Source of the DNA: Lacrimispora celerecrescens
GTDB lineage: Bacteria > Bacillota > Clostridia > Lachnospirales > Lachnospiraceae
Reading direction: 5' to 3'
Assembly (NCBI RefSeq): GCF_000732605.1
Contig: NZ_JPME01000002.1
Coordinates: 186,001-250,000 of the forward strand
DNA length: 64,000 bases
The number at the start of each line of letters is the position of its first letter. Within the stretch, counting starts at the first letter, position 1. This document shows positions 14,771 through 38,358 of the stretch, in pieces. The notes under the pieces were generated by a model. The model did no database searches, had not been told where the DNA came from, and was given only the letters and a program-made list of their open reading frames with translations. The translations under genes were made by a program, and so were the position numbers.

Positions 14771-14774
14771 GAGT

Positions 14775-16082: not shown

Positions 16083-16154
16083 TGCGGAAAAGCCTTGTAT
16101 TATCATGAGATATATGGTATGTAAGAAATACCGGGTCCCTGCAGAGATGCCCGG

Positions 16155-16189: not shown

Positions 16190-16203
16190 GGTATCACATG
16201 TCA

Positions 16204-16491: not shown

Positions 16492-16545
16492 GGCAAACCC
16501 TCCTTTTGAAACAGTGTAACAGCAGGAAGGAGCCTTTGTCAATCC

Positions 16546-16579
16546 GGATACCGATACGAATATCTGATGGATACCGATA
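16546..16579. promoter_or_regulatory. Direct repeat, possible LysR operator
   Basis: The 11-mer GGATACCGATA occurs twice (16546-16556 and 16569-16579), 23 bases start to start. It lies between the divergent NFU-like and LysR genes. The spacing of about two helical turns fits cooperative binding of a LysR tetramer, but binding is inferred. Confidence 0.45.
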
Positions 16580-16612
16580 GGAAAAAACAATAAAAGAAAA
16601 GAGGGAACCGGT

Positions 16613-17506: not shown

Positions 17507-17575
17507 GCTCGCTAAACAGTAGGTTCTGTGAGCTTCACTGCGGACTTAAGGTATAAAAAATGAAGGAGCATAAGC

Positions 17576-18727: not shown

Positions 18728-18739
18728 GGAGGGCTTGTT

Positions 18740-19522: not shown

Positions 19523-19546
19523 CGGAAGAGAGGGGAGACAGGCAAT

Positions 19547-20587
19547 ATGAATTTGGAAGAATACAAAGGGATCTGCGTTTTTGCACAGCAGACAGATCAC
19601 CGGTTAAACAGCATTGCTTTTGAATTGCTTGGAAAAGGAAAAGAACTTGCGAAGGATTTAAAGACAGATGTGACCGCAGTGCTCATTGGTTATGAAATCA
19701 TGGGATTGGCGGACGAACTTGCCGCATATGGTGCTGACAGGGTGATCGTCGTGGATGGACCGGAGTTCAAAGAATACCGTGCGGAGCCCTATACCCATGC
19801 ACTTGCTTCTGCAATCGGGAAATACAAGCCGGAAATCGTTCTCATAGGCGCAACTGCTGTGGGAAGAGAGTTAGGGCCCAAGGTGTCGGCCAGAATTGCA
19901 ACAGGGCTCACTGCGGATTGTACAAAGCTGGAAATTGGGGATTTTCCGTTACATACAGTTCCGGATAAGGAGCAGAAGCATAATCAGCTTTTGATGACCC
20001 GCCCCGCATTCGGCGGCAATACCATAGCGACCATCGCCTGCCCCAATCATCGCCCCCAGATGGCCACAGTCCGTCCGGGAGTAATGCGTACCGCCGGTAA
20101 GCTTCAGGGCAGAAAGGCTTTGATTGAGGAATTCAATCCTGGCTATTATAGCAGGAAGGATACAGAGATCCTGGAGATTGTGAAAGCCGTAAATGAAACA
20201 GCTGACATTATGGACGCTAAAATACTGGTGTCAGGGGGACGTGGCATAGGCGGTCCGGAAAACTTCCACCTTCTGAAGGAGCTTGCAGATGCACTGGGCG
20301 GAGAGGTAAGCTGCTCAAGGGCCGTTGTGGACGCAGGCTGGAAGCCTAAGGACCTACAGGTGGGCCAGACCGGAAAGACCGTTCGTCCCAATGTGTATTT
20401 TGCCGTTGGAATCTCCGGGGCAATCCAGCATGTGGCAGGTATGGAAGAGTCTGATCTGATCATTGCAATCAATAAAGATGAAAGCGCCCCCATTTTTGAG
20501 GTCGCAGATTACGGGATTACCGGTGACTGGAAGAAAATCGTTCCGGAACTGACCAGGCAGCTTCAGGCAGTCAGGGACGGAATATAG
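19547..20587 (+). CDS. etfA: Electron transfer flavoprotein subunit alpha
   Basis: A 346-residue ETF alpha subunit. The C-terminal FAD-binding signature begins near residue 229 (SGGRGIGGPENFHLL) and continues through VGQTGKTVRPNVYFAVGISGAIQH. It is the last gene of the bcd-etfB-etfA operon and partners EtfB in electron transfer to Bcd. No ferredoxin-like N-terminal extension is present. Confidence 0.93.
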   Translation: MNLEEYKGICVFAQQTDHRLNSIAFELLGKGKELAKDLKTDVTAVLIGYEIMGLADELAAYGADRVIVVDGPEFKEYRAEPYTHALASAIGKYKPEIVLIGATAVGRELGPKVSARIATGLTADCTKLEIGDFPLHTVPDKEQKHNQLLMTRPAFGGNTIATIACPNHRPQMATVRPGVMRTAGKLQGRKALIEEFNPGYYSRKDTEILEIVKAVNETADIMDAKILVSGGRGIGGPENFHLLKELADALGGEVSCSRAVVDAGWKPKDLQVGQTGKTVRPNVYFAVGISGAIQHVAGMEESDLIIAINKDESAPIFEVADYGITGDWKKIVPELTRQLQAVRDGI

Positions 20588-20709: not shown

Positions 20710-20767
20710 GTTGGATGAAAAAAGGGATCTTATTTGAAACCATTATTTTCAGGAGGGGTTGAAAAAT

Positions 20768-21460
20768 ATGTATCAGACAATCATCATTGAAGATGACCCA
20801 ATCGTTGCTTCTATTAACCGTCATTTTGTAGAATTAAATAAAGATATGGAAGTATGCGGTTGTTTTAGCAATGGACAGGATGCTCTGAATTATCTGGAGG
20901 AGCATTCGGTAGATTTGGCCATCACGGAACTGTATATGCCGAAAATGGATGGAATGGAGCTTCTGCGGGAGATCCGGAGACAGGAGAAGGATCTGGATGT
21001 CATCGTAGTAAGTTCCGCCAATGATGTAAAGCATGTTAAGAAATTTCTTTCGCTTGGAATTATCGACTATCTGATAAAGCCATTTGAATATACCAGGTTT
21101 AATCATGCTTTGGAGAAGTTCACGAAAAGCCAGGAATTGCTGAAACCCCGTAATTTCTCCCAGTCCCAATTAGATAAGCTTTTTTACATCTCTTCTTTGC
21201 CCCTGGCAGAAGAAAACAGCAAGGGAATCCAGGAAGCTACCTTAAGCAGTATATTGGATTATATGAAGATGCACCAGCTGGATCCAATGACAAGCGATAT
21301 GATTGCCAAAGAGGTCCGGTTGTCCAGTGTGACGGTCAGAAGGTACATGAACTATCTGTTGGAAAAACAGAGGGTTATCAGTGACATTGATTATAATACT
21401 GGAGGAAGGCCCAGTGTTATTTACCGTTACATAATCGAAGAGGAGTGCCTGGCAGAGTGA
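20768..21460 (+). CDS. Orphan response regulator (CitB/DctR type) with Glu at the phosphorylation site
   Basis: A 230-residue protein. Residues 1-120 form a receiver domain: acidic pocket EDDP (8-11), the conserved SSAND serine, and the KPFEY lysine. The phosphoacceptor position 54 is Glu (LAITELYMPKMDG), not Asp. The C-terminal half contains a helix-turn-helix (TSDMIAKEVRLSSVTVRRYM) like those of CitB/DctR regulators. ATG 20768 is chosen because AGGAGG (20751-20756) is 11 bases upstream; the TTG at 20759 would be too close. No histidine kinase is adjacent. Glu commonly mimics the phosphorylated state, so the protein may be constitutively active; this is inference. Confidence 0.85.
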   Translation: MYQTIIIEDDPIVASINRHFVELNKDMEVCGCFSNGQDALNYLEEHSVDLAITELYMPKMDGMELLREIRRQEKDLDVIVVSSANDVKHVKKFLSLGIIDYLIKPFEYTRFNHALEKFTKSQELLKPRNFSQSQLDKLFYISSLPLAEENSKGIQEATLSSILDYMKMHQLDPMTSDMIAKEVRLSSVTVRRYMNYLLEKQRVISDIDYNTGGRPSVIYRYIIEEECLAE

Positions 21461-21536: not shown

Positions 21537-22247
21537 TTATGCCCAGGGGATCGCGCTGTAGAGAAGCACTGCAGCTAAGGCACCGATCAGAGGCCCGAAT
21601 AACACGATGGGAGCATATTTCCAATTGGAACTGCCTTTATCCTTGATGGGAAGGACGGCGTGAGCAAGCCTGGGGCCTAAATCCCTGGCAGGATTGATGG
21701 CGTATCCGGTTAAACCTCCAAGGGACATACCGATGGAAACAATGATTCCAAACACAAAAAGGTTACTAAGTCCAGGAACCGCTCCTGTCTGTCCGATGCC
21801 TTTAATGGCAAATACAAGAACGAATGTTCCGATAGCTTCGCTTAACAGGTTGCGGCCGGTGTTGGGAATCGCAGGTGAAGTACAGAAAACACCTCGTTTC
21901 GTGGCCTGGCTCTCCGTTGCGTCAAGCTGATCCTTAAACAATAAGTAAACCAGGACGGCACCGGTAAATGCTCCTGCGAATTGTGCGATCACATATCCCG
22001 GAACAAGGTCCCATGGAAGGCTTCCGTCTGCTGCCAGGGCTACGGTAACAGCCGGATTAAAATGGGCTCCGGAAGCTGCACCGAAGATGAAAGCAGGAAT
22101 CATAACCGCGAACCCCCATGCAAAGGAGACCTGGATGGAACCTCCACCCTTCATACCGGACTTATCCAGGTTAACATTGGCGACTACGCCATCTCCAAGC
22201 AAAATCAAAATCATAGTTCCTAAAAATTCTGCTATATACATTAACAT
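21537..22247 (-). CDS. glpF: Glycerol uptake facilitator (aquaglyceroporin)
   Basis: A 236-residue MIP-family channel with six membrane segments. Both pore motifs are present: NPA at 64-66 (HFNPAVTV) and NPA at 185-187 followed by Arg188-Asp189 (NPARDLGPR). The Arg-Asp pair is typical of glycerol-conducting members rather than strict water channels. It is encoded 32 bases downstream of glpK on the same strand, forming a glpKF operon for glycerol entry and phosphorylation. Confidence 0.93.
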   Translation of the reverse strand: MLMYIAEFLGTMILILLGDGVVANVNLDKSGMKGGGSIQVSFAWGFAVMIPAFIFGAASGAHFNPAVTVALAADGSLPWDLVPGYVIAQFAGAFTGAVLVYLLFKDQLDATESQATKRGVFCTSPAIPNTGRNLLSEAIGTFVLVFAIKGIGQTGAVPGLSNLFVFGIIVSIGMSLGGLTGYAINPARDLGPRLAHAVLPIKDKGSSNWKYAPIVLFGPLIGALAAVLLYSAIPWA

Positions 22248-22279
22248 ACGTTTCCTCCCTGAAACTTTTATTTAGTTTT

Positions 22280-23903
<1,624 letters not shown>

Positions 23904-23987: not shown

Positions 23988-24788
23988 ATGGTTTACAGCT
24001 ATTATCCGGGCTGCACATTGAAGACAAAGGCGAAGAAGCTGGACCGCTATGCCAGAGATTGTGCCCAAATATTTGAGATTGAGCTGGAAGAGATAGAAGA
24101 CTGGCAATGCTGCGGAGGCGTCTACCCTGGTATGGCAGACGAACTGGCTACACGCCTTTCTCCTGTGCGCGCATTAAGAGAGGCCGGGGATAAAAAGCAG
24201 GATCTGGTGACTGTATGCTCTGCATGTCACCACGTGATAAAAAGAGTTAATGAGGATGTAAAGACCTCCGGAGAAATCAGAAGGAAGATCAACGCTTATC
24301 TGGAACCTGAGAATGGTTATGAAGGCGAGACAAAGGTGATCCACTACTTAGAACTGCTTCGCGACCGTATAGGCTTTGACCGGATCAGGGAAAAAGTAAA
24401 ACAACCTCTTAATGGAAAGAAGATAGCTCCTTATTATGGCTGCCTGCTTTTAAGGCCTTACGATGTAATGAATTTTGACGATCCGGAAAATCCATCGATT
24501 ATGGAAGAGTTTCTTCTTGCAATCGGTGCCAAACCGGTTCACTACGCTTTAAAAAACGAGTGCTGCGGCGGGTATGTGACCATGGAAGATGAGGAATTTG
24601 CTTCTAAAAAAAGTTCCTCTATTATGGAAGCTGCTATGGACCAGGGAGCGGAAAGCATGATTACTGCCTGTCCCCTATGTAAATACAATCTGGAAAACAG
24701 CGGTCTTAAAAATGGAATTCCGGTCTACTATTTTACGGAACTTTTGGCAGAAGCTCTGGGAGTGAAAGAACAGGAGGAAGGAACGTGA
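23988..24788 (+). CDS. hdrB: Heterodisulfide reductase subunit B homologue
   Basis: A 266-residue HdrB-family protein with two complete CCG domains. The first has Cys9, Cys41-Cys42 and Cys77/Cys80 (spacings 31 and 34). The second has C-x39-CC-x34-CxxC ending in TACPLCK. In HdrB these bind non-cubane [4Fe-4S] clusters that cleave a disulfide. Both being intact argues for a catalytic disulfide site rather than a degenerate LdpD/SdhE-type copy. It is the first gene of a dense operon and overlaps hdrC by 4 bases. The disulfide substrate in a non-methanogen is unknown. Confidence 0.9.
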   Translation: MVYSYYPGCTLKTKAKKLDRYARDCAQIFEIELEEIEDWQCCGGVYPGMADELATRLSPVRALREAGDKKQDLVTVCSACHHVIKRVNEDVKTSGEIRRKINAYLEPENGYEGETKVIHYLELLRDRIGFDRIREKVKQPLNGKKIAPYYGCLLLRPYDVMNFDDPENPSIMEEFLLAIGAKPVHYALKNECCGGYVTMEDEEFASKKSSSIMEAAMDQGAESMITACPLCKYNLENSGLKNGIPVYYFTELLAEALGVKEQEEGT

Positions 24789-25156
24789 GGGAAGAAATTT
24801 TAAGAATCAGCGGTGTGAATCCCTTAAAATGTATGAAATGCGGAAAATGTACCGCTTCCTGCCCTGCATTTGAAAAGATGGAATATCACCCGCATCAATT
24901 TGTGGAAATGGTTCAAAACAATCATATCACTCCTCTTTTGGAATCGGAATCCCAGTATTACTGTATGTCCTGTCTGGTCTGTGAGGAGCGGTGCCCCAGA
25001 GGGGTGAAGCCCCAGAAACTCATAGAAGCCGTCCAGGTTTTAAAGTTAAGGGCGTCGGAGGGCAACCGGCTGAAACCACAGGATGTGGCAAACCGGCTGG
25101 ATCCTTCGCTTCCTCAGCAGGCCCTTATGGCGGCATTCAGAAAGTACAGCAGGTGA
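24785..25156 (+). CDS. hdrC: Heterodisulfide reductase subunit C homologue
   Basis: A 123-residue ferredoxin-like protein with two classical [4Fe-4S] motifs: CMKCGKCTASCP near residue 16 and CMSCLVCEERCP near residue 60. This is the HdrC pattern, wiring HdrA to HdrB. A GTG start at 24785 overlaps the end of hdrB, with AGGAGG about 6 bases upstream. It is not a general ferredoxin, judging by its position between hdrB and hdrA and its C-terminal tail. Confidence 0.9.
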   Translation: MREEILRISGVNPLKCMKCGKCTASCPAFEKMEYHPHQFVEMVQNNHITPLLESESQYYCMSCLVCEERCPRGVKPQKLIEAVQVLKLRASEGNRLKPQDVANRLDPSLPQQALMAAFRKYSR

Positions 25157-25178
25157 CAAAAGAAAGGAAGGGAAGAAT

Positions 25179-27167
25179 TTGCAGAAAATAGGAGTTTTTG
25201 TCTGTTGGTGCGGAAGCAACATTGCGGCTACTGTGGATGTAAGCAAGGTCGCAGGAGCTGTGAAGGAAGAACCAGACGTTATTTTTGCATCTGATTATTC
25301 CTACATGTGCTCGGAAGCCGGCCAGCTTATGATCCAAAATGCCATAAAGGAAAAAGGACTGACCGGAATTGTGGTGTGTTCCTGCTCCCCGCGCATGCAT
25401 GAGGCCACATTCCGCAAAGCTGCACAGGCTGCGGGTCTGAATCCTTACATGGTGGAAATCGCCAATATCAGGGAGCAATGCTCCTGGATCCATAAAGATA
25501 AAGAAGAAGGAACGAAAAAAGCAATTCTCTTGGCAAAGGCGGCAATTGCCAAGGTCCGGTTTAACGAACCGCTGACAGCGGGAGAAACCCCGGTGACAAA
25601 GCGGGCTCTGGTGATCGGAGGAGGAATTGCGGGAATCCAGACGGCTCTTGATATCGCGGATGCAGGATTTGAAGTTGACATTGTAGAGAAGTCACCGACC
25701 ATAGGCGGAAAAATGGCTCAGCTTGATAAGACGTTTCCCACTTTGGACTGTGCGGCCTGTATCCTCACACCTAAGATGGTGGACGCAGCAGCTCATGAGA
25801 AGATCCGTTTGTTTACCTACAGTGAAGTGGAGAAGGTAAAAGGATTTGTGGGGAATTTCACCGTTGATATCCGGAAAAAAGCCAGAAGCATACAGGAAGA
25901 GAAGTGCACGGGCTGCGGTGCGTGTATGGAAAAGTGCCCTTCCAGAAAAACAGGAAACGAATTTAATGAAAGGCTGGATAACCGGACTGCCATTTATATT
26001 CCTTTTGCCCAGGCAATCCCAAATATACCGTCCATTGACAGGGAAGCCTGCATTCATTTTAAAACCGGCAAATGCGGCATATGCCAAAAGACCTGCGGCG
26101 TTGGAGCCATTGATTTCGACCAGCAGGATGAGAGGATCACCAGGAAATACGGAGCCATTGTGGCTGCCACAGGGTTTCAGCCCATCTCCCTGGAACGGTT
26201 TGACGAATTCCAGTATTCCAAAAGTCCCGATGTCATCACTTCCTTAGAACTGGAACGGCTGATGAATGCCGCCGGCCCCACAAAAGGAGAACTGGTAAAG
26301 CCCTCCAGCCGTAAACATCCAAGCGATATGGTATTTGTCCAGTGCGTCGGCTCCCGGGGGGAATCCTGCAGGGAGAAGAGTTACTGCTCCAAGATCTGCT
26401 GTATGTACACTGCCAAACATGCCATGATGATCCGTGATAAATATCCGGACATCAATGTTCATGTATTTTACATTGACGTACGCACACCGGGAAAGAATTT
26501 CGACGAATTTTACCGCAGGGCAGTGGAAGATTACGGCGTTGATTACCGGAAAGGTATGGTGGGTAAGGTCATGGAGCAAAAGGACGGCAGGCTGTTAGTA
26601 CAGGCCTCCGATTTACTGACCGGAGAACAGCTTCTGTTACATACGGATATGGTGGTATTGGCAACGGCCATAGAGCCGGATAAATCGGCCAGGGCTCTGG
26701 CTACGATGCTCACGGCAAGCATGGACACCAACGACTTTTTTACGGAGGCCCATCCCAAGCTGAGGCCCGTGGAAAGTCCCACTGCAGGAATATTCTTATC
26801 AGGAACCTGTCAGGGTCCCAAAGATATTCCGGAGACAGTGGCCCAGGCAGGAGCAGCCGCAGCAAAGGTCATCGGTCTTTTAAGCAGAGAGAAGCTTTTA
26901 AATAACCCTCAAGTGGCAAAGGCAGAGGAACGTTTGTGCAGCGGGTGTTCGGGCTGTTCCAAAGTCTGTCCATACGGAGCGATTGACTACGAAGTGAGAG
27001 AGATCTGGGATCATGGGGTCAGGAAAACGCGGAGGATAGCTGTGGTAAACGAGGCGGTGTGCCAGGGCTGCGGAGCCTGTACGGTGACCTGCCCATCCGG
27101 AGCCATGGACTTAAAGGGATTTACTGCAAAACAGATTATGGCGGAGGTAGATGCGATATGCAGATAG
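25179..27167 (+). CDS. hdrA: Heterodisulfide reductase subunit A homologue (flavin electron-bifurcating type)
   Basis: A 662-residue HdrA. The N-terminus has IGVFVCWCGSNI; the Rossmann FAD motif GGGIAGIQTALDIADAG begins near 146; TLDCAACILTPKM and a CTGCGACMEKCP cluster lie near 243; and two C-terminal ferredoxin motifs (CSGCSGCSKVCP near 587, CQGCGACTVTCP near 628) complete the set. HdrA carries the FAD that splits electron pairs between ferredoxin and a lower-energy acceptor. A TTG start at 25179 with GGAAGGGA upstream gives the family length; the ATG at 25083 would add 32 residues that lie inside hdrC. Confidence 0.92.
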   Translation: MQKIGVFVCWCGSNIAATVDVSKVAGAVKEEPDVIFASDYSYMCSEAGQLMIQNAIKEKGLTGIVVCSCSPRMHEATFRKAAQAAGLNPYMVEIANIREQCSWIHKDKEEGTKKAILLAKAAIAKVRFNEPLTAGETPVTKRALVIGGGIAGIQTALDIADAGFEVDIVEKSPTIGGKMAQLDKTFPTLDCAACILTPKMVDAAAHEKIRLFTYSEVEKVKGFVGNFTVDIRKKARSIQEEKCTGCGACMEKCPSRKTGNEFNERLDNRTAIYIPFAQAIPNIPSIDREACIHFKTGKCGICQKTCGVGAIDFDQQDERITRKYGAIVAATGFQPISLERFDEFQYSKSPDVITSLELERLMNAAGPTKGELVKPSSRKHPSDMVFVQCVGSRGESCREKSYCSKICCMYTAKHAMMIRDKYPDINVHVFYIDVRTPGKNFDEFYRRAVEDYGVDYRKGMVGKVMEQKDGRLLVQASDLLTGEQLLLHTDMVVLATAIEPDKSARALATMLTASMDTNDFFTEAHPKLRPVESPTAGIFLSGTCQGPKDIPETVAQAGAAAAKVIGLLSREKLLNNPQVAKAEERLCSGCSGCSKVCPYGAIDYEVREIWDHGVRKTRRIAVVNEAVCQGCGACTVTCPSGAMDLKGFTAKQIMAEVDAICR

Positions 27168-27607
27168 AAGATAACAGCAACAAGGAGTTCCGGCCTCTCA
27201 TCCTGGCTTTTTGCTGCAACTGGTGCAGCTATGCAGGGGCCGATCTGGCAGGATCCAGCCGCTCTTCCTATCCGGCAGAAGTAAAGATTATCCGGGTTCC
27301 CTGTTCCTGCAGGGTGAATCCCCTATTCCTTCTAAGGGCCTTTGAAAAGGGGGCAGATGGTGTGATCTTAGCCGGCTGTCATCCGGGTGACTGCCATTAT
27401 TCCACAGGCAATTACTATACCAGAAGAAGGATGGCTCTTTTGTTTGACATGTTGGATTACCTGGGAATCGAAAGGGAGAGAACCAGGGTGGAGTGGATTT
27501 CCGCAGCAGAGGGTGCCAAGTTCTCTACGACCATGAATGCCTTCACCCAGACAATTAAAGAACTGGGACCAAACAGAAAGCTGAGGGATTTACGATGCAT
27601 GCCATAG
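27158..27607 (+). CDS. flxD: FlxD / MvhD-type iron-sulfur protein
   Basis: A 149-residue protein of the MvhD/FlpD family. It carries the family Cys set LAFCCNWCSYAGAD near residue 19, VPCSCR, and GCHPGDCHY near 75, for a [2Fe-2S] centre linking an NADH or hydrogenase module to HdrA. ATG 27158 overlaps hdrA by 10 bases and has GGAGGT upstream. With no hydrogenase genes nearby and an FAD/NAD subunit downstream, FlxD is a better name than MvhD. Confidence 0.87.
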   Translation: MQIEDNSNKEFRPLILAFCCNWCSYAGADLAGSSRSSYPAEVKIIRVPCSCRVNPLFLLRAFEKGADGVILAGCHPGDCHYSTGNYYTRRRMALLFDMLDYLGIERERTRVEWISAAEGAKFSTTMNAFTQTIKELGPNRKLRDLRCMP

Positions 27608-28476
27608 AAGAAACCATAAAAGAAACATGTAAAAAGCTCTGGGATGATGGAGAAGTAAACCGGATTCTGGCATGGGAAAAAGGACTCTTTGACCATGACG
27701 CGGCTCCCGCCCTGTTCCGGAGCCGGGAACGTATTTCTCATCTGGTTTACAATGAGCACTGCGGGGGAAACTTAAGCAAATTCCTGATAAAAGAAATGGA
27801 AAAAGAAGGAAAGGTACTGGTCCTTTTAAAGCCCTGCGATACCTATGGATTTAACCAGCTTTTATCGGAGAATCGGATAAACCGGGAAAAGGTTTACATT
27901 CTGGGCGTTCCCTGCGGCGGAATGAGGGATGAAAGGGGCCTTCTCTTCAAATGCCTTTCCTGTAAGGGCAATGATTTCAAAGCCTCCGACCAGATCATAG
28001 AATCGGATCTTTCCGTTCCGGCTCCTGTCCCTTCCGGGGAAGAAGAGAAATTAAACAAGATGACTGCAGAAGAACGTTTTGCTTTTTGGCGTGGACAGCT
28101 TTCCAAATGCATCCGCTGCAATGCCTGCCGCAACGTATGTCCTGCCTGCAGCTGTATCAAATGTGTGTTTGACAACCGGGATTCCGGAATAGAGACCAAG
28201 GCCAATTCTGATGCTTTTGAGGAAAATCTGTTTCATATTATAAGGGCCTTCCACGTGGCGGGAAGGTGCACAGACTGTGGGGAGTGCAGCCGGGTCTGCC
28301 CCCAGAACATTCCTCTCTATTTGCTTAACAGGAAAATGATTGAGGAGATGAATGAACGGTACGGAACCTATCAGGCAGGAGAAAATCCCGAAGCTAAGTC
28401 TCCCTTAACGGAGTTTAAGGAGTCTGATCCGGAAATTTCGGCCGAATACGGGAAAGGCGGTGTGTCTTCATGTTAA
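27595..28476 (+). CDS. Flx-module iron-sulfur protein (FlxC-like)
   Basis: A 293-residue protein. An N-terminal domain like the F420-hydrogenase beta/FrhB N-lobe (VYNEHCGGNLSKF, VLLKPCDTYGF, LGVPCGG) is followed by two [4Fe-4S] motifs: CIRCNACRNVCPAC near residue 172 and CTDCGECSRVCPQN near 225. It overlaps flxD by 13 bases and the next gene by 7. The position between FlxD and an FAD/NAD oxidoreductase matches the Flx module known from sulfate reducers, where these subunits pass electrons from NAD(P)H to Hdr. The exact letter assignment (FlxB or FlxC) is uncertain. Confidence 0.78.
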   Translation: MHAIEETIKETCKKLWDDGEVNRILAWEKGLFDHDAAPALFRSRERISHLVYNEHCGGNLSKFLIKEMEKEGKVLVLLKPCDTYGFNQLLSENRINREKVYILGVPCGGMRDERGLLFKCLSCKGNDFKASDQIIESDLSVPAPVPSGEEEKLNKMTAEERFAFWRGQLSKCIRCNACRNVCPACSCIKCVFDNRDSGIETKANSDAFEENLFHIIRAFHVAGRCTDCGECSRVCPQNIPLYLLNRKMIEEMNERYGTYQAGENPEAKSPLTEFKESDPEISAEYGKGGVSSC

Positions 28477-29516
28477 AAATGCCATTGAAATGTCTTGATG
28501 CGCTTTTTTTGGAACTATCAAAGGAGCACCAGGTTTTTGCTCCCATGGAAAAGGCGGGGAGTGTCTCCTTCTTTCCATGGAAAGAGGGCGACACCGTATG
28601 TCTTGATACTCTTTTAACAGATCATTCACCTAAGTCCTTTTTCTTTCCCCAGTCGGAAACGTTATACCGTGCCAGGAGAGAAGAGGGAAGTCTTTCCATT
28701 GTTCCAGAAGAAGCGGAGGAAATCAGCTCTGTTTATTTTGGTGTAAGAGCCTGTGACCGGAGAAGCTTTGAGATCTTGGACCGGGTATTCCTAAGCACGC
28801 CCTGTGATTCCTGCTATGAGTCCAAAAGAAGGAATGGGTATGTGGTAACACTGGCCTGTGAGAATCCGGAAGATACCTGTTTTTGCCAAACTTTTGGCAT
28901 CGACCCTGCCTGGCCGGGAGGAGATGTGTCCGTCTGGATCGCAGACGGAGACCTTTACTGGAAAAGCCTGACCGAAAAGGGAGAAGCATTAACGGAATTA
29001 GTCGAAGGGTTGTTTGAGGCGGGAGACCACGAAAAGGCAGAGGAGGAGAAAGCAAAGATCCGGAAGAAGCTGGAAGCTCTGCCCCTTAAGGATTTGAGTC
29101 TTGGACGGTTTGAACATCCGGATTCCGCCATGGATTTATTTGAGTCAGAACAATGGGAAACCTTATCTGACACCTGCCTCGGCTGCGGGATCTGTACGTT
29201 TCTATGCCCCACCTGCCAGTGCTATGATATATGCGACTATGACACAGGCCATGAAATCAGGAAGTTCCGCTGCTGGGATTCCTGCATGTATCCGGGTTTT
29301 ACGGAGATGTCCCATGGAAATAACAGAAACAGCCAAATGCAGCGGTTCCGTCAGAGATTCATGCATAAGCTGGTTTATTTTCCGGAAAACAACGGCGGAG
29401 TATATTCCTGTGTGGGTTGCGGAAGGTGTCTGCGCAAATGTCCGTCTTCCTTAAATATTGTCAGGGTGATAAAAGCGATAGGAGAGTCAGATGCCGAAGG
29501 AGGAAACGATGAGTAA
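28470..29516 (+). CDS. Flx-module dicluster iron-sulfur protein (FlxB / AsrA-like)
   Basis: A 348-residue protein of the hydrogenase-beta/anaerobic sulfite reductase A group. The N-terminal 200 residues contain GVRACDRRSFEILDRVF and several Cys (CDSC, CFC). The C-terminal part carries [4Fe-4S] motifs CLGCGICTFLCP from Cys236, with extra Cys in CQCYDIC, and CVGCGRCLRKCP from Cys314. It should relay electrons from the flavin subunit encoded next. It overlaps that gene by 8 bases, indicating tight translational coupling. Confidence 0.78.
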   Translation: MLKMPLKCLDALFLELSKEHQVFAPMEKAGSVSFFPWKEGDTVCLDTLLTDHSPKSFFFPQSETLYRARREEGSLSIVPEEAEEISSVYFGVRACDRRSFEILDRVFLSTPCDSCYESKRRNGYVVTLACENPEDTCFCQTFGIDPAWPGGDVSVWIADGDLYWKSLTEKGEALTELVEGLFEAGDHEKAEEEKAKIRKKLEALPLKDLSLGRFEHPDSAMDLFESEQWETLSDTCLGCGICTFLCPTCQCYDICDYDTGHEIRKFRCWDSCMYPGFTEMSHGNNRNSQMQRFRQRFMHKLVYFPENNGGVYSCVGCGRCLRKCPSSLNIVRVIKAIGESDAEGGNDE

Positions 29517-30342
29517 CAGAACCAATGTATTGATTCCGGGGATCGGCGTGATTACAGATGTAAGAAGGGATACACCGGACGTGAAAACCTTCCGTGTAAA
29601 TGGGCTGGAGGGCAGAAAACCCTTTGAACATATGCCGGGTCAATGTGCCATGCTATCGATTCCGGGAGTTGGGGAAGCCATGTTTTCCATCACTTCCTCA
29701 CCAACCAACCGGGATTACATGGAGTTTTCCATTAAAAAATGCGGCTGCCTCACAGACTGGCTTCACCAGATGGAAAAGGGGCAGGAAATTGCCCTGCGAG
29801 GACCTTATGGCAATTATTTTCCAGTAGATACGGATTTAAAAGGTAAGAACCTGCTCTTTATCGCCGGAGGGATCGGAATCGCACCTCTGCGGTCTGTGAT
29901 TCATTACGTCATTGATCACCGGGGGGATTACGGCCAGGTGGATATTGTTTACGGAGCCCGTTCGGCAGAGGACCTGGTGGATTTAGAAGAGATGAGGAAG
30001 GACTGGTCAAATGTGGAGGGCTTTCGTGTACATCTGACCATTGACCGGGCAGAAGAAGGCTGGGATGGGAATGTGGCCTTTGTGCCTGATTATGTCAGGG
30101 AACTGAAATTTTCAAATGACAGAACCGCTTTGGTTTGCGGTCCGCCTGTAATGATAAAATTTGTGCTTCAGGCACTGGAAGAAATGGGATTTGCCGGTAC
30201 TGAAATCTATACGACCATGGAGCTTAAGATGAAATGCGGAGTGGGCAAATGCGGGCGCTGTAACATAGGCTCTAAGTACGTCTGCAAGGATGGACCGGTG
30301 TTCCGTTATGATGAATTGGGCGTCCTGCCCTCTGAATATTAG
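29509..30342 (+). CDS. flxA: FlxA-like FAD/NAD(P)-binding oxidoreductase
   Basis: A 277-residue ferredoxin-reductase-like subunit. It has an FAD-binding barrel (MFSITSSP near residue 58), an NAD(P) fold with FIAGGIGIAPLRSVIHY near 115, a VYGARS segment, and a C-terminal [2Fe-2S] Cys set MKCGVGKCGRCNIG near 243, as in PyrK and AsrB. ATG 29509 is preferred because AAGGAGG (29497-29503) lies before it; the upstream ATG at 29491 lacks a site. It is the likely NADH entry point of the Flx-Hdr complex. Confidence 0.85.
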   Translation: MSNRTNVLIPGIGVITDVRRDTPDVKTFRVNGLEGRKPFEHMPGQCAMLSIPGVGEAMFSITSSPTNRDYMEFSIKKCGCLTDWLHQMEKGQEIALRGPYGNYFPVDTDLKGKNLLFIAGGIGIAPLRSVIHYVIDHRGDYGQVDIVYGARSAEDLVDLEEMRKDWSNVEGFRVHLTIDRAEEGWDGNVAFVPDYVRELKFSNDRTALVCGPPVMIKFVLQALEEMGFAGTEIYTTMELKMKCGVGKCGRCNIGSKYVCKDGPVFRYDELGVLPSEY

Positions 30343-30353
30343 GAGGTTGACCA

Positions 30354-31028
30354 ATGAATGACATGATTACTGTTTATCTGTTCGGTAAAAAATACACGGT
30401 TCCGTCCAACTTAACCATAATGGGAGCAATGGAGTACGCAGGATACCAGCTTGTGCGGGGCTGCGGCTGCAGGTGCGGCTTCTGCGGAGCCTGTGCCACG
30501 ATTTACCGAATCAAGGGAGACAGGGAATTAAAGACCTGCCTGGCCTGCCAGACCCAGGTCCGGGAAAATATGTATGTAGCCACCCTTCCCTTTTTCCCTC
30601 TGGTAAAAGAGGTTTATGACATAAATGAAGTTCCGGTCAATGAACAGGTCATGATGGAGCTGTATCCGGAAATCTACAAATGCATCGGGTGTGCGGCCTG
30701 TACCAAGAGCTGTCCCCAGGGACTGGACACCATGCAGTACATCGCATATGCCCAGAGAGGGGAATTGGAAAAATGTGCCGAAGAGTCCTTTGACTGTGTA
30801 ATGTGCGGAATCTGTTCATCCAGGTGTCCAGCCGGGATTTCCCATCCCCAGGTGGGTCTTTTAGCCAGGCGGATCACCGGAAAATATCTGGCTCCGGAGG
30901 CAAGGCACTTAACCAACCGGGTAAGAGAGGTAGAGGCCGGTGATTTTACGGAGCTGATCGAAGCGATCATGGCAAAACCCCTGGAAGAACTGAAGAACCT
31001 TTATAATACCAGGGAAATCGAAAAGTAG
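30354..31028 (+). CDS. Fumarate reductase iron-sulfur subunit-like protein
   Basis: A 224-residue FrdB/SdhB-type protein. The N-terminal [2Fe-2S] domain has a Cys-rich loop (GCGCRCGFCGAC near residue 36) and TCLAC. Two ferredoxin motifs follow: CIGCAACTKSCPQG near 110 and CVMCGICSSRCPAG near 149. Typical FrdB has one [2Fe-2S], one [4Fe-4S] and one [3Fe-4S]; here both C-terminal motifs have four Cys, more like TfrB or HdrC. It lies 11 bases after flxA and 11 bases before the flavoprotein. No membrane anchor genes are present, so the enzyme should be soluble. Confidence 0.82.
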   Translation: MNDMITVYLFGKKYTVPSNLTIMGAMEYAGYQLVRGCGCRCGFCGACATIYRIKGDRELKTCLACQTQVRENMYVATLPFFPLVKEVYDINEVPVNEQVMMELYPEIYKCIGCAACTKSCPQGLDTMQYIAYAQRGELEKCAEESFDCVMCGICSSRCPAGISHPQVGLLARRITGKYLAPEARHLTNRVREVEAGDFTELIEAIMAKPLEELKNLYNTREIEK

Positions 31029-31039
31029 GAGGAATAGAC

Positions 31040-32641
31040 ATGTTTACAGCCAAGATGATGGATTCCGTAAAAAAGGTCGAGGCCACCAGAAAAGAGCGGA
31101 TGGAGACAGAGCCCCGGAGAATGACGGCCGAAGAAAAGGAAAAGCTGCTGAAAGCCTATCATCCGGATTATAAAGAGGAAGAGTTTGTCATACTGAAGGC
31201 AGGTCCTAATAAGGGAGAAAAGGTGCCCAGAGAACTGGGAGTCCTTTTGCAGGCCAGAAGCCGGATCAAAGACACTGATGTGGATTTATCATCTCCGGAT
31301 TATGATACGGACGTTCTGATCATCGGGGGAGGGGGAGCAGGCTGTGCAGCTGCCATTGAGGCTTCTAGGGCAGGAGCAGAGGTATTGATCGTCACGAAGC
31401 TCCGTCTGGGGGATGCCAACACCATGATGGCGGAAGGCGGAATCCAGGCTGCTGACAAAGAGAATGATTCCCCCCAGATCCACTACTTAGACGCCCTGGG
31501 AGGGGGACATTTTGCCAACCGTCCCCAGCTTTTAAAGAAACTGGTCATGGAAGCTCCGGGGGCCCTTAAATGGTTAAATGAGCTGGGAGTGATGTTTGAC
31601 AAGGACAAAGACGGGAACATGATCACCACTCACGGCGGCGGCACTTCCAGAAAGCGGATGCACGCTGCGGCTGACTATACGGGTGCGGAGATCATGAGAG
31701 TGCTCCGGGATGAAGTATTAAACCTCCCGATTTCCTTAGCTGATTATACCTCTGCCATTGAACTCATTTTAGATGAGGAGGGAAGAGCGGCGGGAGCAGT
31801 TCTTATGAATATGGAAACAGGAGAGCTTTTAACAGCCAGGGCAAAGACCGTAATCCTGGCCACAGGGGGAGCCGGACGGCTCCACTATCAGGGATTTCCT
31901 ACCTCCAACCACTACGGGGCCACGGCCGACGGCCTGGTTTTGGCTTACCGGGCAGGGGCAAAGCTTCTCTACCAGGACACCCTTCAGTACCATCCCACGG
32001 GGGTGGCTTTTCCGGAACAGATTTATGGGGCTCTGGTCACAGAAAAGGTCCGTTCCCTAGGCGCCATGCTGGTCAATGCTGGAGGAGAGGCTTTCATGCA
32101 CCCATTGGAGACCAGAGATGTGTCCGCCGCCTCCATTATCAGAGAGTGTGCAAACGGGAAAGGGGTTGTCACACCACTTGGGAAGGGGATCTGGCTGGAT
32201 ACTCCCATGATCGATTTGATACATGGGAAAGGAACCTTGGAAAAGCGTCTTCCCGGAATGCTTCGCATGTATTTAAAATACGAAATTGATATGAGAAAAA
32301 CACCTATATTGATCTATCCAACCCTTCATTACCAAAACGGCGGAATCGAGATCGGCGCGGATTGCCAGAGTACCATAGAGAACTTATTTGTGGCAGGAGA
32401 AGCGGTGGGAGGGATTCACGGAAGGAACCGTCTTATGGGAAATTCTCTTCTGGATATTATTGTTTTTGGCCGCAATGCCGGAACATGTGCGGCCAGACGC
32501 GTGAAAGACATACATACAGGGAAGCTTACTTTGGCACATATCAGAGAGATGGAAGAGGAGTGCCAAAGGGCCGGTATTGTTACGGATAAAATTTCCCCGC
32601 TGCTTTTGCCAAAGTATGCCAGAACAGCGGGGCAGCTATAA
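31040..32641 (+). CDS. Fumarate reductase flavoprotein subunit-like protein
   Basis: A 533-residue FrdA/SdhA-family flavoprotein. After an unusual charged N-terminal extension of about 85 residues comes the FAD motif LIIGGGGAGCAAAIEA near 92. The GDANTMMAEGGIQAA segment, LQYHPTGVAF near 316, ETRDVSAA, and the C-terminal GGIHGRNRLMGNSLLDIIVFG match the family's substrate and flavin residues. It should reduce fumarate to succinate. The C-terminal helical domain is shorter than in membrane-bound enzymes. Its placement directly after Flx-Hdr and before fumarase supports fumarate as substrate. Confidence 0.85.
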   Translation: MFTAKMMDSVKKVEATRKERMETEPRRMTAEEKEKLLKAYHPDYKEEEFVILKAGPNKGEKVPRELGVLLQARSRIKDTDVDLSSPDYDTDVLIIGGGGAGCAAAIEASRAGAEVLIVTKLRLGDANTMMAEGGIQAADKENDSPQIHYLDALGGGHFANRPQLLKKLVMEAPGALKWLNELGVMFDKDKDGNMITTHGGGTSRKRMHAAADYTGAEIMRVLRDEVLNLPISLADYTSAIELILDEEGRAAGAVLMNMETGELLTARAKTVILATGGAGRLHYQGFPTSNHYGATADGLVLAYRAGAKLLYQDTLQYHPTGVAFPEQIYGALVTEKVRSLGAMLVNAGGEAFMHPLETRDVSAASIIRECANGKGVVTPLGKGIWLDTPMIDLIHGKGTLEKRLPGMLRMYLKYEIDMRKTPILIYPTLHYQNGGIEIGADCQSTIENLFVAGEAVGGIHGRNRLMGNSLLDIIVFGRNAGTCAARRVKDIHTGKLTLAHIREMEEECQRAGIVTDKISPLLLPKYARTAGQL

Positions 32642-32754: not shown

Positions 32755-33597
32755 ATGAGAGAAATATCAGTAAAGACATTGATCGATGTAGTAGAAAAGC
32801 TGTGCATTGATGCAAATCAGTACTTACCGGAAGATGTGAAGAAGGCAATCAAAACCTGCCGTGCCTGTGAGGACTGGGACATTGCCGCCGGGGTTCTTGA
32901 CAATATTATCGAGAACTTTGAAATTGCAGAAAGGGAAGATGTTCCCATCTGTCAGGATACGGGCATGGCCTGTGTGTTTCTGGAGATCGGCCAGGATGTC
33001 CACCTTGTGGACGGCGACTTGACCGAAGCAATCAATGAAGGCGTGCGCAGAGGCTACGAAAAGGGATTTTTAAGAAAATCCGTCGTAAAAGACCCGGTAA
33101 GGCGAGGAAATACAGGGGATAACACTCCGGCTTTAATCTATACGGAAATCGTTCCGGGAGACCAGGTGAAAATTACGGTAGGACCCAAAGGCTTTGGAAG
33201 CGAGAACATGAGCGCACTCCGCATGTTCAAGCCTTCAGCGGGTCTCCAGGGAATCAAGGATTTTATTCTGGAAACCGTATCCGCCGCAGGTCCCAATCCC
33301 TGTCCTCCCGTTGTAGTGGGCGTAGGGATTGGAGGCAGCTTTGACAAGGCAGCCCTATTGGCGAAAAAGGCTTTGATGAGAGATTTGGATTCCTCCAATC
33401 CGGATCCTTACTATGCGGATCTGGAAAAAGAGATGCTGGAAAAGATCAACCTTCTGGGAATCGGTCCCCAGGGCTTTGGCGGAAAGACCACTGCCATTGG
33501 AGTAAACATTGAAACCATGCCTACCCATATCGCAGGCATGCCCTGTGCCATCAATATCAACTGTCATGTGACACGCCATAAAACGGAAGTAGTCTGA
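32755..33597 (+). CDS. Class I fumarase / tartrate dehydratase-type alpha subunit
   Basis: A 280-residue alpha subunit of the two-subunit Fe-S hydro-lyases. Cys66 in PICQDTGMAC is the conserved N-terminal cluster ligand; further conserved Cys occur in NPCPPVVVG and MPCAININCH. Together with the next gene it should interconvert malate and fumarate, using an oxygen-sensitive [4Fe-4S] cluster. L-tartrate dehydratase is the main alternative; the neighbouring fumarate reductase and malate dehydrogenase genes favour fumarase. Confidence 0.9.
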   Translation: MREISVKTLIDVVEKLCIDANQYLPEDVKKAIKTCRACEDWDIAAGVLDNIIENFEIAEREDVPICQDTGMACVFLEIGQDVHLVDGDLTEAINEGVRRGYEKGFLRKSVVKDPVRRGNTGDNTPALIYTEIVPGDQVKITVGPKGFGSENMSALRMFKPSAGLQGIKDFILETVSAAGPNPCPPVVVGVGIGGSFDKAALLAKKALMRDLDSSNPDPYYADLEKEMLEKINLLGIGPQGFGGKTTAIGVNIETMPTHIAGMPCAININCHVTRHKTEVV

Positions 33598-35648: not shown

Positions 35649-36812
35649 ATGATGTATTGTATGAGTGTAAGCCATAAAAAGGCTTCTGTGAATATCCGGG
35701 AACGGTTCGCCTTCAGCGAAGAAGAGAAGGTAGAATTTGTAGAACGGCTGATGAAGAAAGAAGCGGTGACCGGTGTAGTTGTGCTTTGCACCTGTAACCG
35801 AAGTGAGATTTATGTTTCAGGAACTAAGCAAGCAATCGGGGAACTACAGCGGGAAGCTGCTGATTTTAAAGGAATCCGGTTGGAGGAGCTGCTGAAATAC
35901 TTAAATATCTACAGCGGGGAAAGTGCCATCGGACATTTATTTAAGGTTGCCTGCGGATTTGATTCCATGGTTCTTGGAGAAGATGAGATATTAGGGCAGG
36001 TAAAATCGGCATATGAGATTTCTAAGGATCAGGGAGCGGTGGATTATGAAATGAATGTGCTGTTCCAAAGGGCGTTTGCCTGTGCCAAACGGATCAAGAC
36101 GGATACTAATTTATCCAGGACGCCTCTCTCCATTGCAACTTTAGTAGCCAATGAGGTGTTCCGCTTTGAAAAAGAGGGCGGAGAAAAGAATGTAATGGTG
36201 ATCGGCATGACCGGTAAAATGGGAAACACGATAACAAAAAATATATTAAGCAAGCCTGGAATCCATGTCACCGGCACAGTCAGAAGCCATAAGTCCGATC
36301 TGACGATGGAGGTAAAGGGGGACCGGGTAAAGGTTGTGGATTACAGAGACCGCTATCAGTACATGGATGAGATGGACATTGTTATCAGTGCCACTTCGGG
36401 CCCTCATTACACGGTAACCTGTGAAGAACTGTCAGAGCAAGTGACTCCGGGAAAAAGGAGGCTGTTTATGGATGTGGCCGTTCCTGTGGACATGGACCCT
36501 AAGATTGAGGAAGTGGAAGGGCTGACTCTTTATAACATCGACTATTTTGAAACACTTTCAAAAAATAACACGGAAATAAAATTAAAGGAACTGGACCGGG
36601 CAAACGTGATTATGAAAGAGGACTTAGATGGAGCCATCAAGGAGGTGGTGTTCCATCCATATATCCGGAGAATGGAAGAGCTTAAGAAAACATTTGCGGG
36701 AAAACGTCTGGATACGCTTCTTTTTGAAATCCGGGATCATGTATCTAGTGAGGAGTTAAAGGTGGTACTTAAAACCCTGGATGGCCTGGAAAGCTGGATT
36801 AAGGAGGGATGA
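35649..36812 (+). CDS. hemA: Glutamyl-tRNA reductase
   Basis: A 387-residue enzyme that makes glutamate-1-semialdehyde from glutamyl-tRNA(Glu), the first committed step of tetrapyrrole synthesis. The nucleophilic Cys is Cys49 in LCTCNRSEIY. GFDSMVLGEDEILGQVK and the NADPH domain (VMVIGMTGKMGNT) are present. The N-terminal His of the usual SHK motif is kept (SVSHKKASV). It is slightly short of the ~415-450 typical length at the C-terminal dimerisation domain. It overlaps or abuts the next gene. Confidence 0.93.
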   Translation: MMYCMSVSHKKASVNIRERFAFSEEEKVEFVERLMKKEAVTGVVVLCTCNRSEIYVSGTKQAIGELQREAADFKGIRLEELLKYLNIYSGESAIGHLFKVACGFDSMVLGEDEILGQVKSAYEISKDQGAVDYEMNVLFQRAFACAKRIKTDTNLSRTPLSIATLVANEVFRFEKEGGEKNVMVIGMTGKMGNTITKNILSKPGIHVTGTVRSHKSDLTMEVKGDRVKVVDYRDRYQYMDEMDIVISATSGPHYTVTCEELSEQVTPGKRRLFMDVAVPVDMDPKIEEVEGLTLYNIDYFETLSKNNTEIKLKELDRANVIMKEDLDGAIKEVVFHPYIRRMEELKKTFAGKRLDTLLFEIRDHVSSEELKVVLKTLDGLESWIKEG

Positions 36813-36814
36813 CC

Positions 36815-37453
36815 GTGGCTTATTTCCCATTTTTTGTTGATATTGAGGGGAAAGGGTGCTTGATTGCAGGCGGAGGAACGGTCGCCTGCCGCAAGGCTTT
36901 GACACTTATGGATTATGGCCCGGATATTATTGTTGTATCTCCCCAGGTGACTTCCGAGATGGAACGGCTGATAAAGGAGAGTGGGGGAAAGCTCACATGG
37001 AGATGCCGGGAATTTGAAGAATCCGATCTGGAGAACATGGATTTTGTAATAGCAGCAACTTCCGATGAAGGATTAAACCGGCAGATATCCATCTGGTGCA
37101 GGGAACGGAAGATTCCGGTCAATGTGGCAGACATTCAGGAGGAGTGCAGCTTTATCTTTCCGGCTCTTATAAAAGATGGGGGGATCACGGTGGGGATTTC
37201 CACGGGAGGAAGCGCTCCGGCCCTTGCCCATTATCTAAAAGAGAAGCTTAAGGAAGCCATACCAAAGGGACTTGGCGGCCTGGCTAATCAGCTAGGCTCT
37301 TATAGGGAAATGGTAAGAGAACGGGTGAATTCCCACCATGTCAGAAGGTCAATCTTTAGAACTATGACAGAAGAGGGGATCCGCCAGGGAAAATATACCA
37401 GAGAACAGGCAGAAGAACTGATAGAAAGGAAGCTGGCGGAGCATGAGAAGTAA
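36815..37453 (+). CDS. Precorrin-2 dehydrogenase / siroheme synthase N-domain protein
   Basis: A 212-residue NAD-binding protein of the SirC/Met8/CysG-N family. It oxidises precorrin-2 to sirohydrochlorin and may also chelate. It shows CLIAGGGTVACRKA near residue 17, FVIAATSDEGLNR near 75 and ISTGGSAPALAHYLKEKL near 120. A GTG start at 36815 is chosen because AGGAGG (36802-36807) is 7 bases upstream; the ATG at 36809 overlaps the site. It overlaps hemC by 11 bases. Confidence 0.9.
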   Translation: MAYFPFFVDIEGKGCLIAGGGTVACRKALTLMDYGPDIIVVSPQVTSEMERLIKESGGKLTWRCREFEESDLENMDFVIAATSDEGLNRQISIWCRERKIPVNVADIQEECSFIFPALIKDGGITVGISTGGSAPALAHYLKEKLKEAIPKGLGGLANQLGSYREMVRERVNSHHVRRSIFRTMTEEGIRQGKYTREQAEELIERKLAEHEK

Positions 37454-38345: not shown

Positions 38346-38358
38346 TAAGGAGGATGCT

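What the first reader, a model, noticed from the sequence alone, without database searches (positions are those of the whole stretch)
23988..32641. A complete Flx-Hdr complex encoded in line with a soluble fumarate-reductase-like pair
hdrB, hdrC, hdrA, flxD, two Fe-S subunits and flxA overlap or nearly touch, and are followed after 11 bases by an FrdB-like and an FrdA-like gene. HdrB has both CCG cluster motifs intact. No hydrogenase, dsrC or methanogenesis gene is nearby. The arrangement suggests that NADH oxidation at FlxA is split by HdrA between ferredoxin and fumarate, either directly or through a dithiol made at HdrB. Flx-Hdr and Tfr-type fumarate reductases are known separately; their joining in one clostridial operon is what I would look at first.
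Basis: partly seen in the sequence, partly recalled or inferred. Interest (0 to 1): 0.82.

Follow-up and report, generated by a model that had tools for sequence, protein, structure and literature searches.

The report
NADH-driven soluble fumarate reductase operon
A Clostridium-like bacterium carries, in one gene run, an enzyme set that probably uses NADH to reduce fumarate to succinate and saves part of the energy as reduced ferredoxin; the same gene set is common in related bacteria and had already been proposed in print, and I found no biochemical test of it.

Summary
hdrB, hdrC, hdrA, flxD, flxC, flxB, flxA, frdB-like and frdA-like genes lie head to tail at 23988-32641, followed by both fumarase subunits and a malate-dehydrogenase-type gene (to 35456). 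The order is not chance: of 80 relatives with FrdA at least 70% identical, 52 hold all nine genes in order, 22 are cut by a contig end but show what remains, and 6 end before flxA. Ilyobacter has the nine beside aspartase. FrdA keeps every fumarate-site residue checked; HdrB keeps all ten cluster cysteines. The genome has Rnf, PFOR and a PEPCK match, no DsrC, and no MenD over cut-off. Best reading: 2 NADH are bifurcated by Flx-HdrA to ferredoxin and, through HdrC/HdrB and FrdB, to fumarate. Direct transfer is favoured over a free dithiol: FrdB lacks TfrB's thiol-site domain, and nearly all frd-linked HdrBs form their own clade, including HdrCB-FrdBA units without adjacent HdrA. Novelty is limited: the arrangement is described for Pseudoclostridium thermosuccinogenes (PMC7282089, citing a 2019 preprint), and a flx-hdr/tfr interspersion for tubeworm symbionts (PMC6315080). 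FrdAB also occurs without Flx-Hdr. No biochemistry was done here.

The parts
23988..24788 (+). hdrB: CCG-domain subunit, two noncubane-cluster motifs; proposed electron exit to FrdB
   Evidence: PF02754 twice; ten cysteines kept in 80 of 80 HdrBs from frd loci; aligns with solved HdrB chains
24785..25156 (+). hdrC: 2[4Fe-4S] subunit
   Evidence: Fer4_8; TIGR03290 matched below its cut-off
25179..27167 (+). hdrA (TTG start): FAD subunit, proposed bifurcation site
   Evidence: NF040770 793.6 bits, below its cut-off of 1100; aligns over its length with 5odc_A, E 9.3e-197, and keeps the QCVGSR...YCS..CC segment
27158..27607 (+). flxD (FlpD/MvhD-like)
   Evidence: PF02662 185 bits; the only FlpD match in the genome
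27595..28476 (+). flxC: dicluster Fe-S subunit
   Evidence: Fer4_8; order conserved
28470..29516 (+). flxB: sulfhydrogenase-beta / AsrA-like Fe-S subunit
   Evidence: Fer4_22; NF040829 below cut-off; 9nez_B E 2e-32
29491..30342 (+). flxA: FAD/NAD(P)-binding subunit, proposed NADH entry (alternative ATG at 29509)
   Evidence: NAD_binding_1, FAD_binding_6, DHODB Fe-S
30354..31028 (+). frdB-like: N-terminal 2Fe-2S domain plus two [4Fe-4S] motifs, no CCG domain, no [3Fe-4S]-type motif
31040..32641 (+). frdA-like: fumarate reductase flavoprotein with an 88-residue N-terminal extension and no C-terminal helical domain
   Evidence: PF00890 246 bits; active-site residues kept; best fold match E. coli FrdA 1kf6_A
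32755..33597 (+). fumarase alpha (two-subunit type)
   Evidence: PF05681 398.7 bits
33620..34246 (+). fumarase beta
   Evidence: PF05683 191.6 bits
34344..35456 (+). Ldh_2-family dehydrogenase, probably malate dehydrogenase (substrate inferred from context)
   Evidence: PF02615 405.6 bits
35520..35535 (+). terminator-like hairpin after the last gene; such hairpins are no commoner here than in shuffles

Best explanation
The operon encodes a soluble, electron-bifurcating NADH:fumarate/ferredoxin oxidoreductase that needs no quinone. FlxA oxidises NADH. Electrons pass through FlxB, FlxC and FlxD to the FAD of HdrA, which sends one of each pair to ferredoxin. The other goes through HdrC and the noncubane clusters of HdrB to FrdB and then to the probably non-covalent FAD of FrdA, where fumarate becomes succinate: 2 NADH + fumarate + oxidised ferredoxin -> 2 NAD+ + succinate + ferredoxin reduced by two electrons. 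The fumarase and the malate-dehydrogenase-type gene in the same run supply fumarate from oxaloacetate or malate. Rnf can turn the reduced ferredoxin into an ion gradient, so fumarate reduction would conserve energy without a membrane fumarate reductase. Shown here by sequence: the gene set, its conservation, intact cofactor and active-site residues, and the presence of Rnf and PFOR genes. Inferred: that the subunits form one complex, the direction, bifurcation itself, and direct HdrB-to-FrdB transfer.
For: Of 80 loci with FrdA at least 70% identical, 52 show all nine genes in order and 22 show the part the contig holds; the other 6 end before flxA. Most titles are clostridial MAGs, with one Treponema and one Planctomycetaceae MAG. 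The Ilyobacter polytropus megaplasmid has the nine genes between aspartase and an aspartate aminotransferase. Six fumarate-site positions are kept in 65 of 65 family members (T or S at one). Best structural match E. coli FrdA. All ten HdrB cluster cysteines in 80 of 80. HdrB: 38 of 39 frd-linked rows, plus two rows from genomes whose frd lies elsewhere, are split at 100/98 from 12 of 12 HdrBs of FlpD loci without frd in the fetched stretch; the frd side holds four HdrCB-FrdBA units without HdrA in the stretch. FrdB lacks the CCG domain of TfrB. RnfC, PFOR and a PEPCK match are over cut-off; DsrC none; MenD none over cut-off. Standard-potential sum -33 to -53 kJ per fumarate (potentials recalled except the ferredoxin range, read in PMC12773636).
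Against: FrdBA of the same family lies without Hdr genes beside it in 18 of 40 places, and four genomes (G123, G127, G329, G404; FrdA 62-66% identical) have no FlpD match at all, so FrdAB can be fed otherwise. In the HdrB tree L058 (frd-linked) falls among the free ones. The four genomes with HdrCB-FrdBA units have 4 to 8 FlpD matches elsewhere, so an HdrA could serve them in trans. The HdrA tree separates free from other rows only at 78/92. The menaquinone test covers MenD only; the futalosine route was not searched. The 4-hydroxybutyrate genes nearby could make succinate a substrate as well as a product. No expression or biochemical evidence for this genome; no solved Flx-Hdr-Frd complex turned up for the five subunits searched.
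Confidence: 0.65

Rival explanations
1. HdrB reduces a small disulfide and the resulting dithiol, not HdrB itself, reduces FrdAB.
For: HdrB keeps both noncubane clusters' cysteines, as in disulfide-reducing HdrABC; Tfr enzymes use thiols as donor (recalled; Heim 1998 seen only as a reference in PMC6315080).
Against: FrdB has no CCG domain, so FrdAB has no known thiol-oxidising site; DsrC is absent from the genome; HdrCB sits with FrdBA even without HdrA beside it in four loci, which fits a shared electron path.
Confidence: 0.12
2. Flx-Hdr and FrdBA are co-transcribed but independent: FrdBA takes electrons from ferredoxin, another flavoprotein or NADH, while Flx-Hdr acts on something else.
For: FrdBA in four genomes without a FlpD match; a Pseudoroseomonas plasmid has FrdBA with a NuoF-like gene (annotation).
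Against: Fixed order in all 74 near-clade loci long enough to show flx genes, bar one extra weak hit in L123; an HdrB clade that tracks frd, including two genomes where frd lies elsewhere.
Confidence: 0.12
3. It runs in reverse: succinate oxidation is driven by reduced ferredoxin while NAD+ is reduced (confurcation).
For: Some other family members lie beside what look, by eye, like succinyl-CoA synthetase or 2-oxoacid:ferredoxin oxidoreductase genes (L053, L054, L058).
Against: This window has fumarase and a malate-dehydrogenase-type gene downstream and a PEPCK match in the genome, as in the reductive branch; fumarate is the thermodynamically favoured acceptor.
Confidence: 0.08
4. FrdA reduces another enoate, not fumarate.
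For: Relatives of FrdA vary in substrate (urocanate, methacrylate reductases; seen only in the listing).
Against: All six fumarate-site positions checked are kept in 65 of 65, T or S at one; fumarase or aspartase in the neighbourhood.
Confidence: 0.03

Closest known systems
'Succinate operon' of Pseudoclostridium thermosuccinogenes (PMC7282089; abstract and passages read)
   Same: Fumarase, seven-gene Flx-Hdr and two-gene fumarate reductase in one operon; ferredoxin-coupled fumarate reduction assumed, citing the 2019 preprint of Koendjbiharie and van Kranenburg (title seen only as a reference)
   Different: There the fumarase is at the other end and a possible transporter follows; here fumAB and an Ldh_2-family gene follow frdA. 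Sequences were not compared
flxABCD-hdrABC interspersed with tfrAB and korABCD in tubeworm symbionts and Thioflavicoccus (PMC6315080; passages read)
   Same: Flx-Hdr with a fumarate reductase; direct electron shuttling suggested
   Different: rTCA carbon-fixation cluster in Gammaproteobacteria, with korABCD
FlxABCD-HdrABC of Desulfovibrio (Ramos 2015; seen only as a citation, content recalled)
   Same: Same seven kinds of subunit
   Different: Electrons there are thought to go to DsrC or another disulfide (recalled); here FrdBA is attached and DsrC is absent
Thiol:fumarate reductase TfrAB of methanogens
   Same: FrdA-like flavoprotein; TfrA is the best-scoring NCBIfam family
   Different: TfrB carries its own CCG domain and uses CoM-SH/CoB-SH (recalled); window FrdA scores 348.9 against a cut-off of 718 and FrdB has no CCG domain
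HdrABC-MvhAGD and formate dehydrogenase complexes of methanogens
   Same: HdrA aligns over its length with 5odc_A; HdrB aligns with solved HdrB chains
   Different: Donor is NADH via Flx, not H2 or formate; acceptor fumarate instead of CoM-S-S-CoB

Membership tests
FlxABCD-HdrABC | All seven subunits together | tested here: met
   NCBIfam HdrA/B/C equivalogs matched, none over its cut-off
FlxABCD-HdrABC | NAD(P)H/FAD domain in FlxA and flavin domain in HdrA | tested here: met
   PF00175 and PF00970 in FlxA; HdrA aligns to 5odc_A
FlxABCD-HdrABC | HdrB with two intact five-cysteine motifs | tested here: met
FlxABCD-HdrABC | NADH-dependent bifurcating ferredoxin reduction | not testable with these tools
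   needs enzyme
Thiol:fumarate reductase (Tfr) | TfrA equivalog score over the curated cut-off | tested here: not met
   348.9 against 718 bits
Thiol:fumarate reductase (Tfr) | CCG domain fused in TfrB | tested here: not met
   FrdB-like is 224 aa and has no PF02754 match
Complex II / quinol:fumarate reductase | Covalent-FAD histidine | tested here: not met
   Asn in the window and in 64 of 65 family members
Complex II / quinol:fumarate reductase | Membrane anchor genes beside frdAB | tested here: not met
   frdA is followed by fumarase, frdB preceded by flxA
Complex II / quinol:fumarate reductase | [3Fe-4S] motif as third cluster | tested here: not met
   C148/C151/C154/C158, a full four-cysteine motif
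Fumarate reductase flavoprotein superfamily | Dicarboxylate-binding and proton-donor residues | tested here: met
   positions H232, E245, R287, H355, R390 in 65 of 65, T or S at 244 (E. coli numbering and roles recalled)
L-aspartate oxidase (NadB) | NadB equivalog score over the cut-off | tested here: not met
   269.5 against 452.75 bits
P. thermosuccinogenes-type succinate operon | Fumarase + Flx-Hdr + FrdBA in one gene run | tested here: met
   gene content as described in PMC7282089
P. thermosuccinogenes-type succinate operon | Sequence relationship of the FrdAB proteins | not tested
   that genome was not identified among the loci held

The most novel reading that the evidence does not exclude
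FrdBA plus a dedicated HdrB/HdrC pair is a general plug-in: a soluble fumarate reductase in which the HdrB noncubane clusters act as a direct electron port into FrdB rather than as a disulfide reductase. It is mounted on different electron inputs (Flx-HdrA, tandem HdrA, or none encoded nearby). In gut Clostridia it would perform fumarate respiration in the cytoplasm, coupled to ion pumping through ferredoxin and Rnf (about 0.56 extra ATP per succinate at the stoichiometries used in PMC12773636). In this genus it feeds an adjacent 4-hydroxybutyrate-to-butyrate pathway.
Probability: 0.4. Interest if true: 0.75.

Novelty: new member of a known kind. Interest (0 to 1): 0.5.

Why it matters
If right, many gut Clostridia would conserve energy when they make succinate, without needing a membrane fumarate reductase. 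In the window's family 49 of 396 sampled genomes carry this FrdA. It would add fumarate to the high-potential acceptors of HdrA-type bifurcation and change energy budgets. For example, the 2026 Blautia luti study reports 0.83 succinate per glucose in resting cells, high frdAB transcription and viologen-linked fumarate reductase activity, budgets for an NADH-dependent fumarate reductase, and a search of its main text found no word beginning with 'Hdr' or 'Flx' (PMC12773636, passages). Its relative Blautia glucerasea has all nine genes plus fumarase (L114); B. luti itself could not be checked here. It also offers a test of what noncubane HdrB clusters do when no disulfide substrate is known.

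Tried and rejected
Tfr membership: rejected on score and missing CCG domain. A terminator or structured stretch between frdA and fumA: no + strand terminator-like site there, and the fold is no better than shuffles (z -0.16). FrdB fold search: weak (TM by query length at most 0.34 in the 50 rows shown), best to NADH-linked, Rnf and HdrC Fe-S proteins; not informative beyond domain type. FrdA fold search: canonical Frd/Sdh. That the link between flx-hdr and frd is universal: rejected. That every frd-linked HdrB is of one lineage: one exception, L058. A search around G390 found this FrdA in 8 of 41 genomes; the three new loci (L194-L196) were not examined. Literature: seven searches in the held PMC library only; the 2019 preprint and most subscription papers could not be read, so biochemical work may exist.

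Caveat on the trees: rows were picked, not all loci. FrdA: 65 family rows plus 5 canonical (15 of the 80 genome-contig loci; L046, L088 and L092 left out). HdrB: 53 rows (13 of the 80). HdrA: 43 rows. Of the 19 usable FlpD stretches, L198, L199, L208, L212 and L213 showed no HdrB hit and are not in the HdrB tree. Five HdrB rows (L099, L117, L125, L143, L156), one FrdA row (L153) and one stray frdB hit (L210) contained stop signs, probably because the tblastn hit ran past a gene end; of these only the L099 HdrB entered a tree, with the sign dropped, while the five HdrBs entered the cysteine count.
Full report
WHAT IS THERE. The nine genes stand as described, all on the + strand, overlapping or at most 22 bases apart. 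hdrA most likely begins at a TTG at 25179, because the ATG listed at 25083 lies within hdrC. The run continues: after 113 bases come fumarase alpha and beta and an Ldh_2-family dehydrogenase, ending at 35456. No + strand terminator-like site falls in the frdA-fumA gap and one lies just after the last gene, but such sites are not commoner than in shuffles. Upstream, a glycerol-kinase-type (FGGY) and an aquaporin-type (MIP) gene are divergent (read as glpK and glpF).

SUBUNITS. FlxA has FAD and NAD domains, FlxB is sulfhydrogenase-beta-like, FlxC a dicluster protein, FlxD a full FlpD. HdrA aligns over its length with 5odc_A (E 9.3e-197) and keeps the QCVGSR...YCS..CC segment (its role as an unusual cluster site is recalled). 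HdrB keeps C9, C41, C42, C77, C80, C152, C192, C193, C228 and C231, identical in 80 of 80 HdrBs taken from frd loci.

THE FRDAB PAIR IS ITS OWN FAMILY. FrdA has an 88-residue N-terminal extension and ends where canonical proteins begin their C-terminal helical domain (TfrA profile matched 6-419 of 546; alignment). All 40 places match from residue 1-6 of the window protein, while the six canonical hits align only from residue 82-91 onward. The canonical FAD-histidine is Asn in 64 of 65, so FAD is probably not covalently bound; the six substrate-site positions are kept in 65 of 65, with T or S at one (numbering and roles recalled). The model (mean pLDDT 84) matches E. coli FrdA best (1kf6_A, E 7.4e-35). 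FrdB has one 2Fe-2S-type site and two full four-cysteine motifs, no CCG domain and no [3Fe-4S]-type motif.

DISTRIBUTION. In 398 genomes of the window's phylum (unnamed; Bacillota by the titles of its relatives), 39 hold this FrdA in 40 places; six further genomes matched only through canonical FrdA/SdhA. In the window's family it is in 49 of 396, in its genus in 5 of 25. Around the 40 places, within the fetched stretches: hdrBCA-flxDCBA-frdBA 2, frdBA-hdrBCA-flxDCBA 4, hdrC/hdrB with hdrA (often several) and flxD then frdBA 11 (two of them, L065 and L079, cut before hdrB), hdrCB-frdBA without HdrA or Flx 4, fumarase-malic enzyme-frdBA 7, fumB-unidentified gene-frdBA 1, no Hdr set seen 10 (two with a weak hdrC-like hit), undetermined at a contig end 1. 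Eight further relatives with FrdA 71-99% identical all have the nine-gene order (in L046 frdA is cut by the contig end). Ilyobacter polytropus has the same nine genes on a megaplasmid between aspartase and an aspartate aminotransferase, with a TAXI-TRAP transporter behind: a separate pointer to fumarate.

TREES. On the FrdA tree complete Flx-Hdr linkage appears in three separate places: the window clade, L083, and the frd-first clade; rows without Hdr (L049-L052) lie inside or beside the window clade. Gains and losses cannot be told apart. On the HdrB tree 38 of 39 frd-linked rows plus two rows from genomes whose frd lies elsewhere are split from 12 free ones with 100/98 support; L058 is the exception. 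The frd side includes the four HdrCB units that have no HdrA beside them; their genomes do hold FlpD genes elsewhere. The HdrA tree splits free from the rest only at 78/92. I read this as HdrB being the FrdB-specific partner; it is correlation, not contact.

AGAINST A STRICT LINK. G123, G127, G329 and G404 carry frdBA of this family (FrdA 62-66% identical) and no FlpD match at all. Of 39 genomes with this FrdA 35 have a FlpD somewhere, against 122 of 359 without it. FrdBA also occurs in aerobes: Pseudoroseomonas has it with a NuoF-like gene (annotation), Cupriavidus records at 47-48% identity. So the pair can be fed by other donors.

MECHANISM. Own genome: RnfC 533 bits, over cut-off; PFOR over cut-off; a PEPCK match over cut-off but weak and partial, 67 bits; DsrC none; MenD only two matches below cut-off, with the futalosine route not searched; one FlpD; one FrdA at E 1e-60. 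With standard potentials the 1:1 split of two NADH between ferredoxin and fumarate releases 33 to 53 kJ per fumarate; with rough physiological guesses 12 to 28. Direct HdrB-FrdB transfer is preferred because FrdB lacks the thiol-handling domain of TfrB, DsrC is absent, and HdrCB goes with FrdBA even where no HdrA is beside it.

PRIOR WORK. PMC7282089 (abstract and passages) describes the P. [quoted passage not shown] PMC6315080 (passages) proposes a complex of Flx-Hdr with Tfr and Kor. PMC12773636 (passages) gives the B. luti data. PMC8578096, PMC6037941 and PMC10238741 were looked at in passages, where I saw no such fumarate reductase. In the seven library searches I saw no report of the purified enzyme. 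Hence: known kind, new member; the wide distribution, an frd-tracking HdrB lineage and HdrCB-FrdBA units are additions that I did not see in the passages read.

NEIGHBOURHOOD. 9453-20587 encodes an acylating-aldehyde-dehydrogenase-like protein, an Fe-ADH, a protein close to 4-hydroxybutyryl-CoA dehydratase (1u8v, E 1.2e-235), two CoA-transferases (the second: 3gk7, E 1.4e-147), an acyl-CoA dehydrogenase and EtfBA: probably succinate or 4-hydroxybutyrate to butyrate. A response regulator and the divergent glycerol genes lie between. All five genus members with frd share this layout, while the dehydratase is in 20 of 25 genus members, so the butyrate genes do not depend on frd.

Noticed in passing
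9453-20587: Probable 4-hydroxybutyrate/succinate-to-butyrate cluster: acylating aldehyde dehydrogenase, Fe-ADH, 4-hydroxybutyryl-CoA dehydratase, two CoA-transferases, LysR, acyl-CoA dehydrogenase, EtfBA. Same neighbourhood in all five frd-bearing members of the genus; one of them (G002) has a second dehydratase copy elsewhere.
   Followed up: partly
20759-21460: Response regulator with a DpiA-like HTH (below Pfam cut-off), a type recalled to answer citrate or C4-dicarboxylates, between the butyrate cluster and the frd operon; I named no sensor kinase gene beside it.
   Followed up: no
21537-23809: glpF- and glpK-type genes are divergent from hdrB in all five genus members with frd, which hints at glycerol as the reduced substrate.
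   Followed up: partly
   Followed up: no
L098 (Pseudoroseomonas plasmid), L097 and L193 (Cupriavidus): The same FrdBA family at about 46-48% FrdA identity in aerobes; in L098 next to a NuoF-like gene, suggesting a simple NADH-linked version.
   Followed up: partly
L067, L071, L075, L059: HdrC-HdrB-FrdB-FrdA units without HdrA or Flx in the fetched stretch, three of them behind fumarase; possible minimal fumarate reductase or succinate dehydrogenase with HdrB as port.
   Followed up: partly
L049, L050, L051: frdBA without Hdr in genomes with no FlpD match; in L049 directly behind a 1144-residue gene that looks by eye like pyruvate carboxylase. The electron donor is unknown.
   Followed up: no
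L054, L086, L087: Dicluster-type Fe-S proteins (by eye) flank frdBA where no Hdr set is present; they may be substitute electron inputs. The family check failed on wrong coordinates.
   Followed up: no
35649-39867: Tetrapyrrole genes follow the operon: a hemA-like gene (by eye), NAD_binding_7/Sirohm, porphobilinogen deaminase, and a tetrapyrrole methylase-HemD fusion.
   Followed up: no
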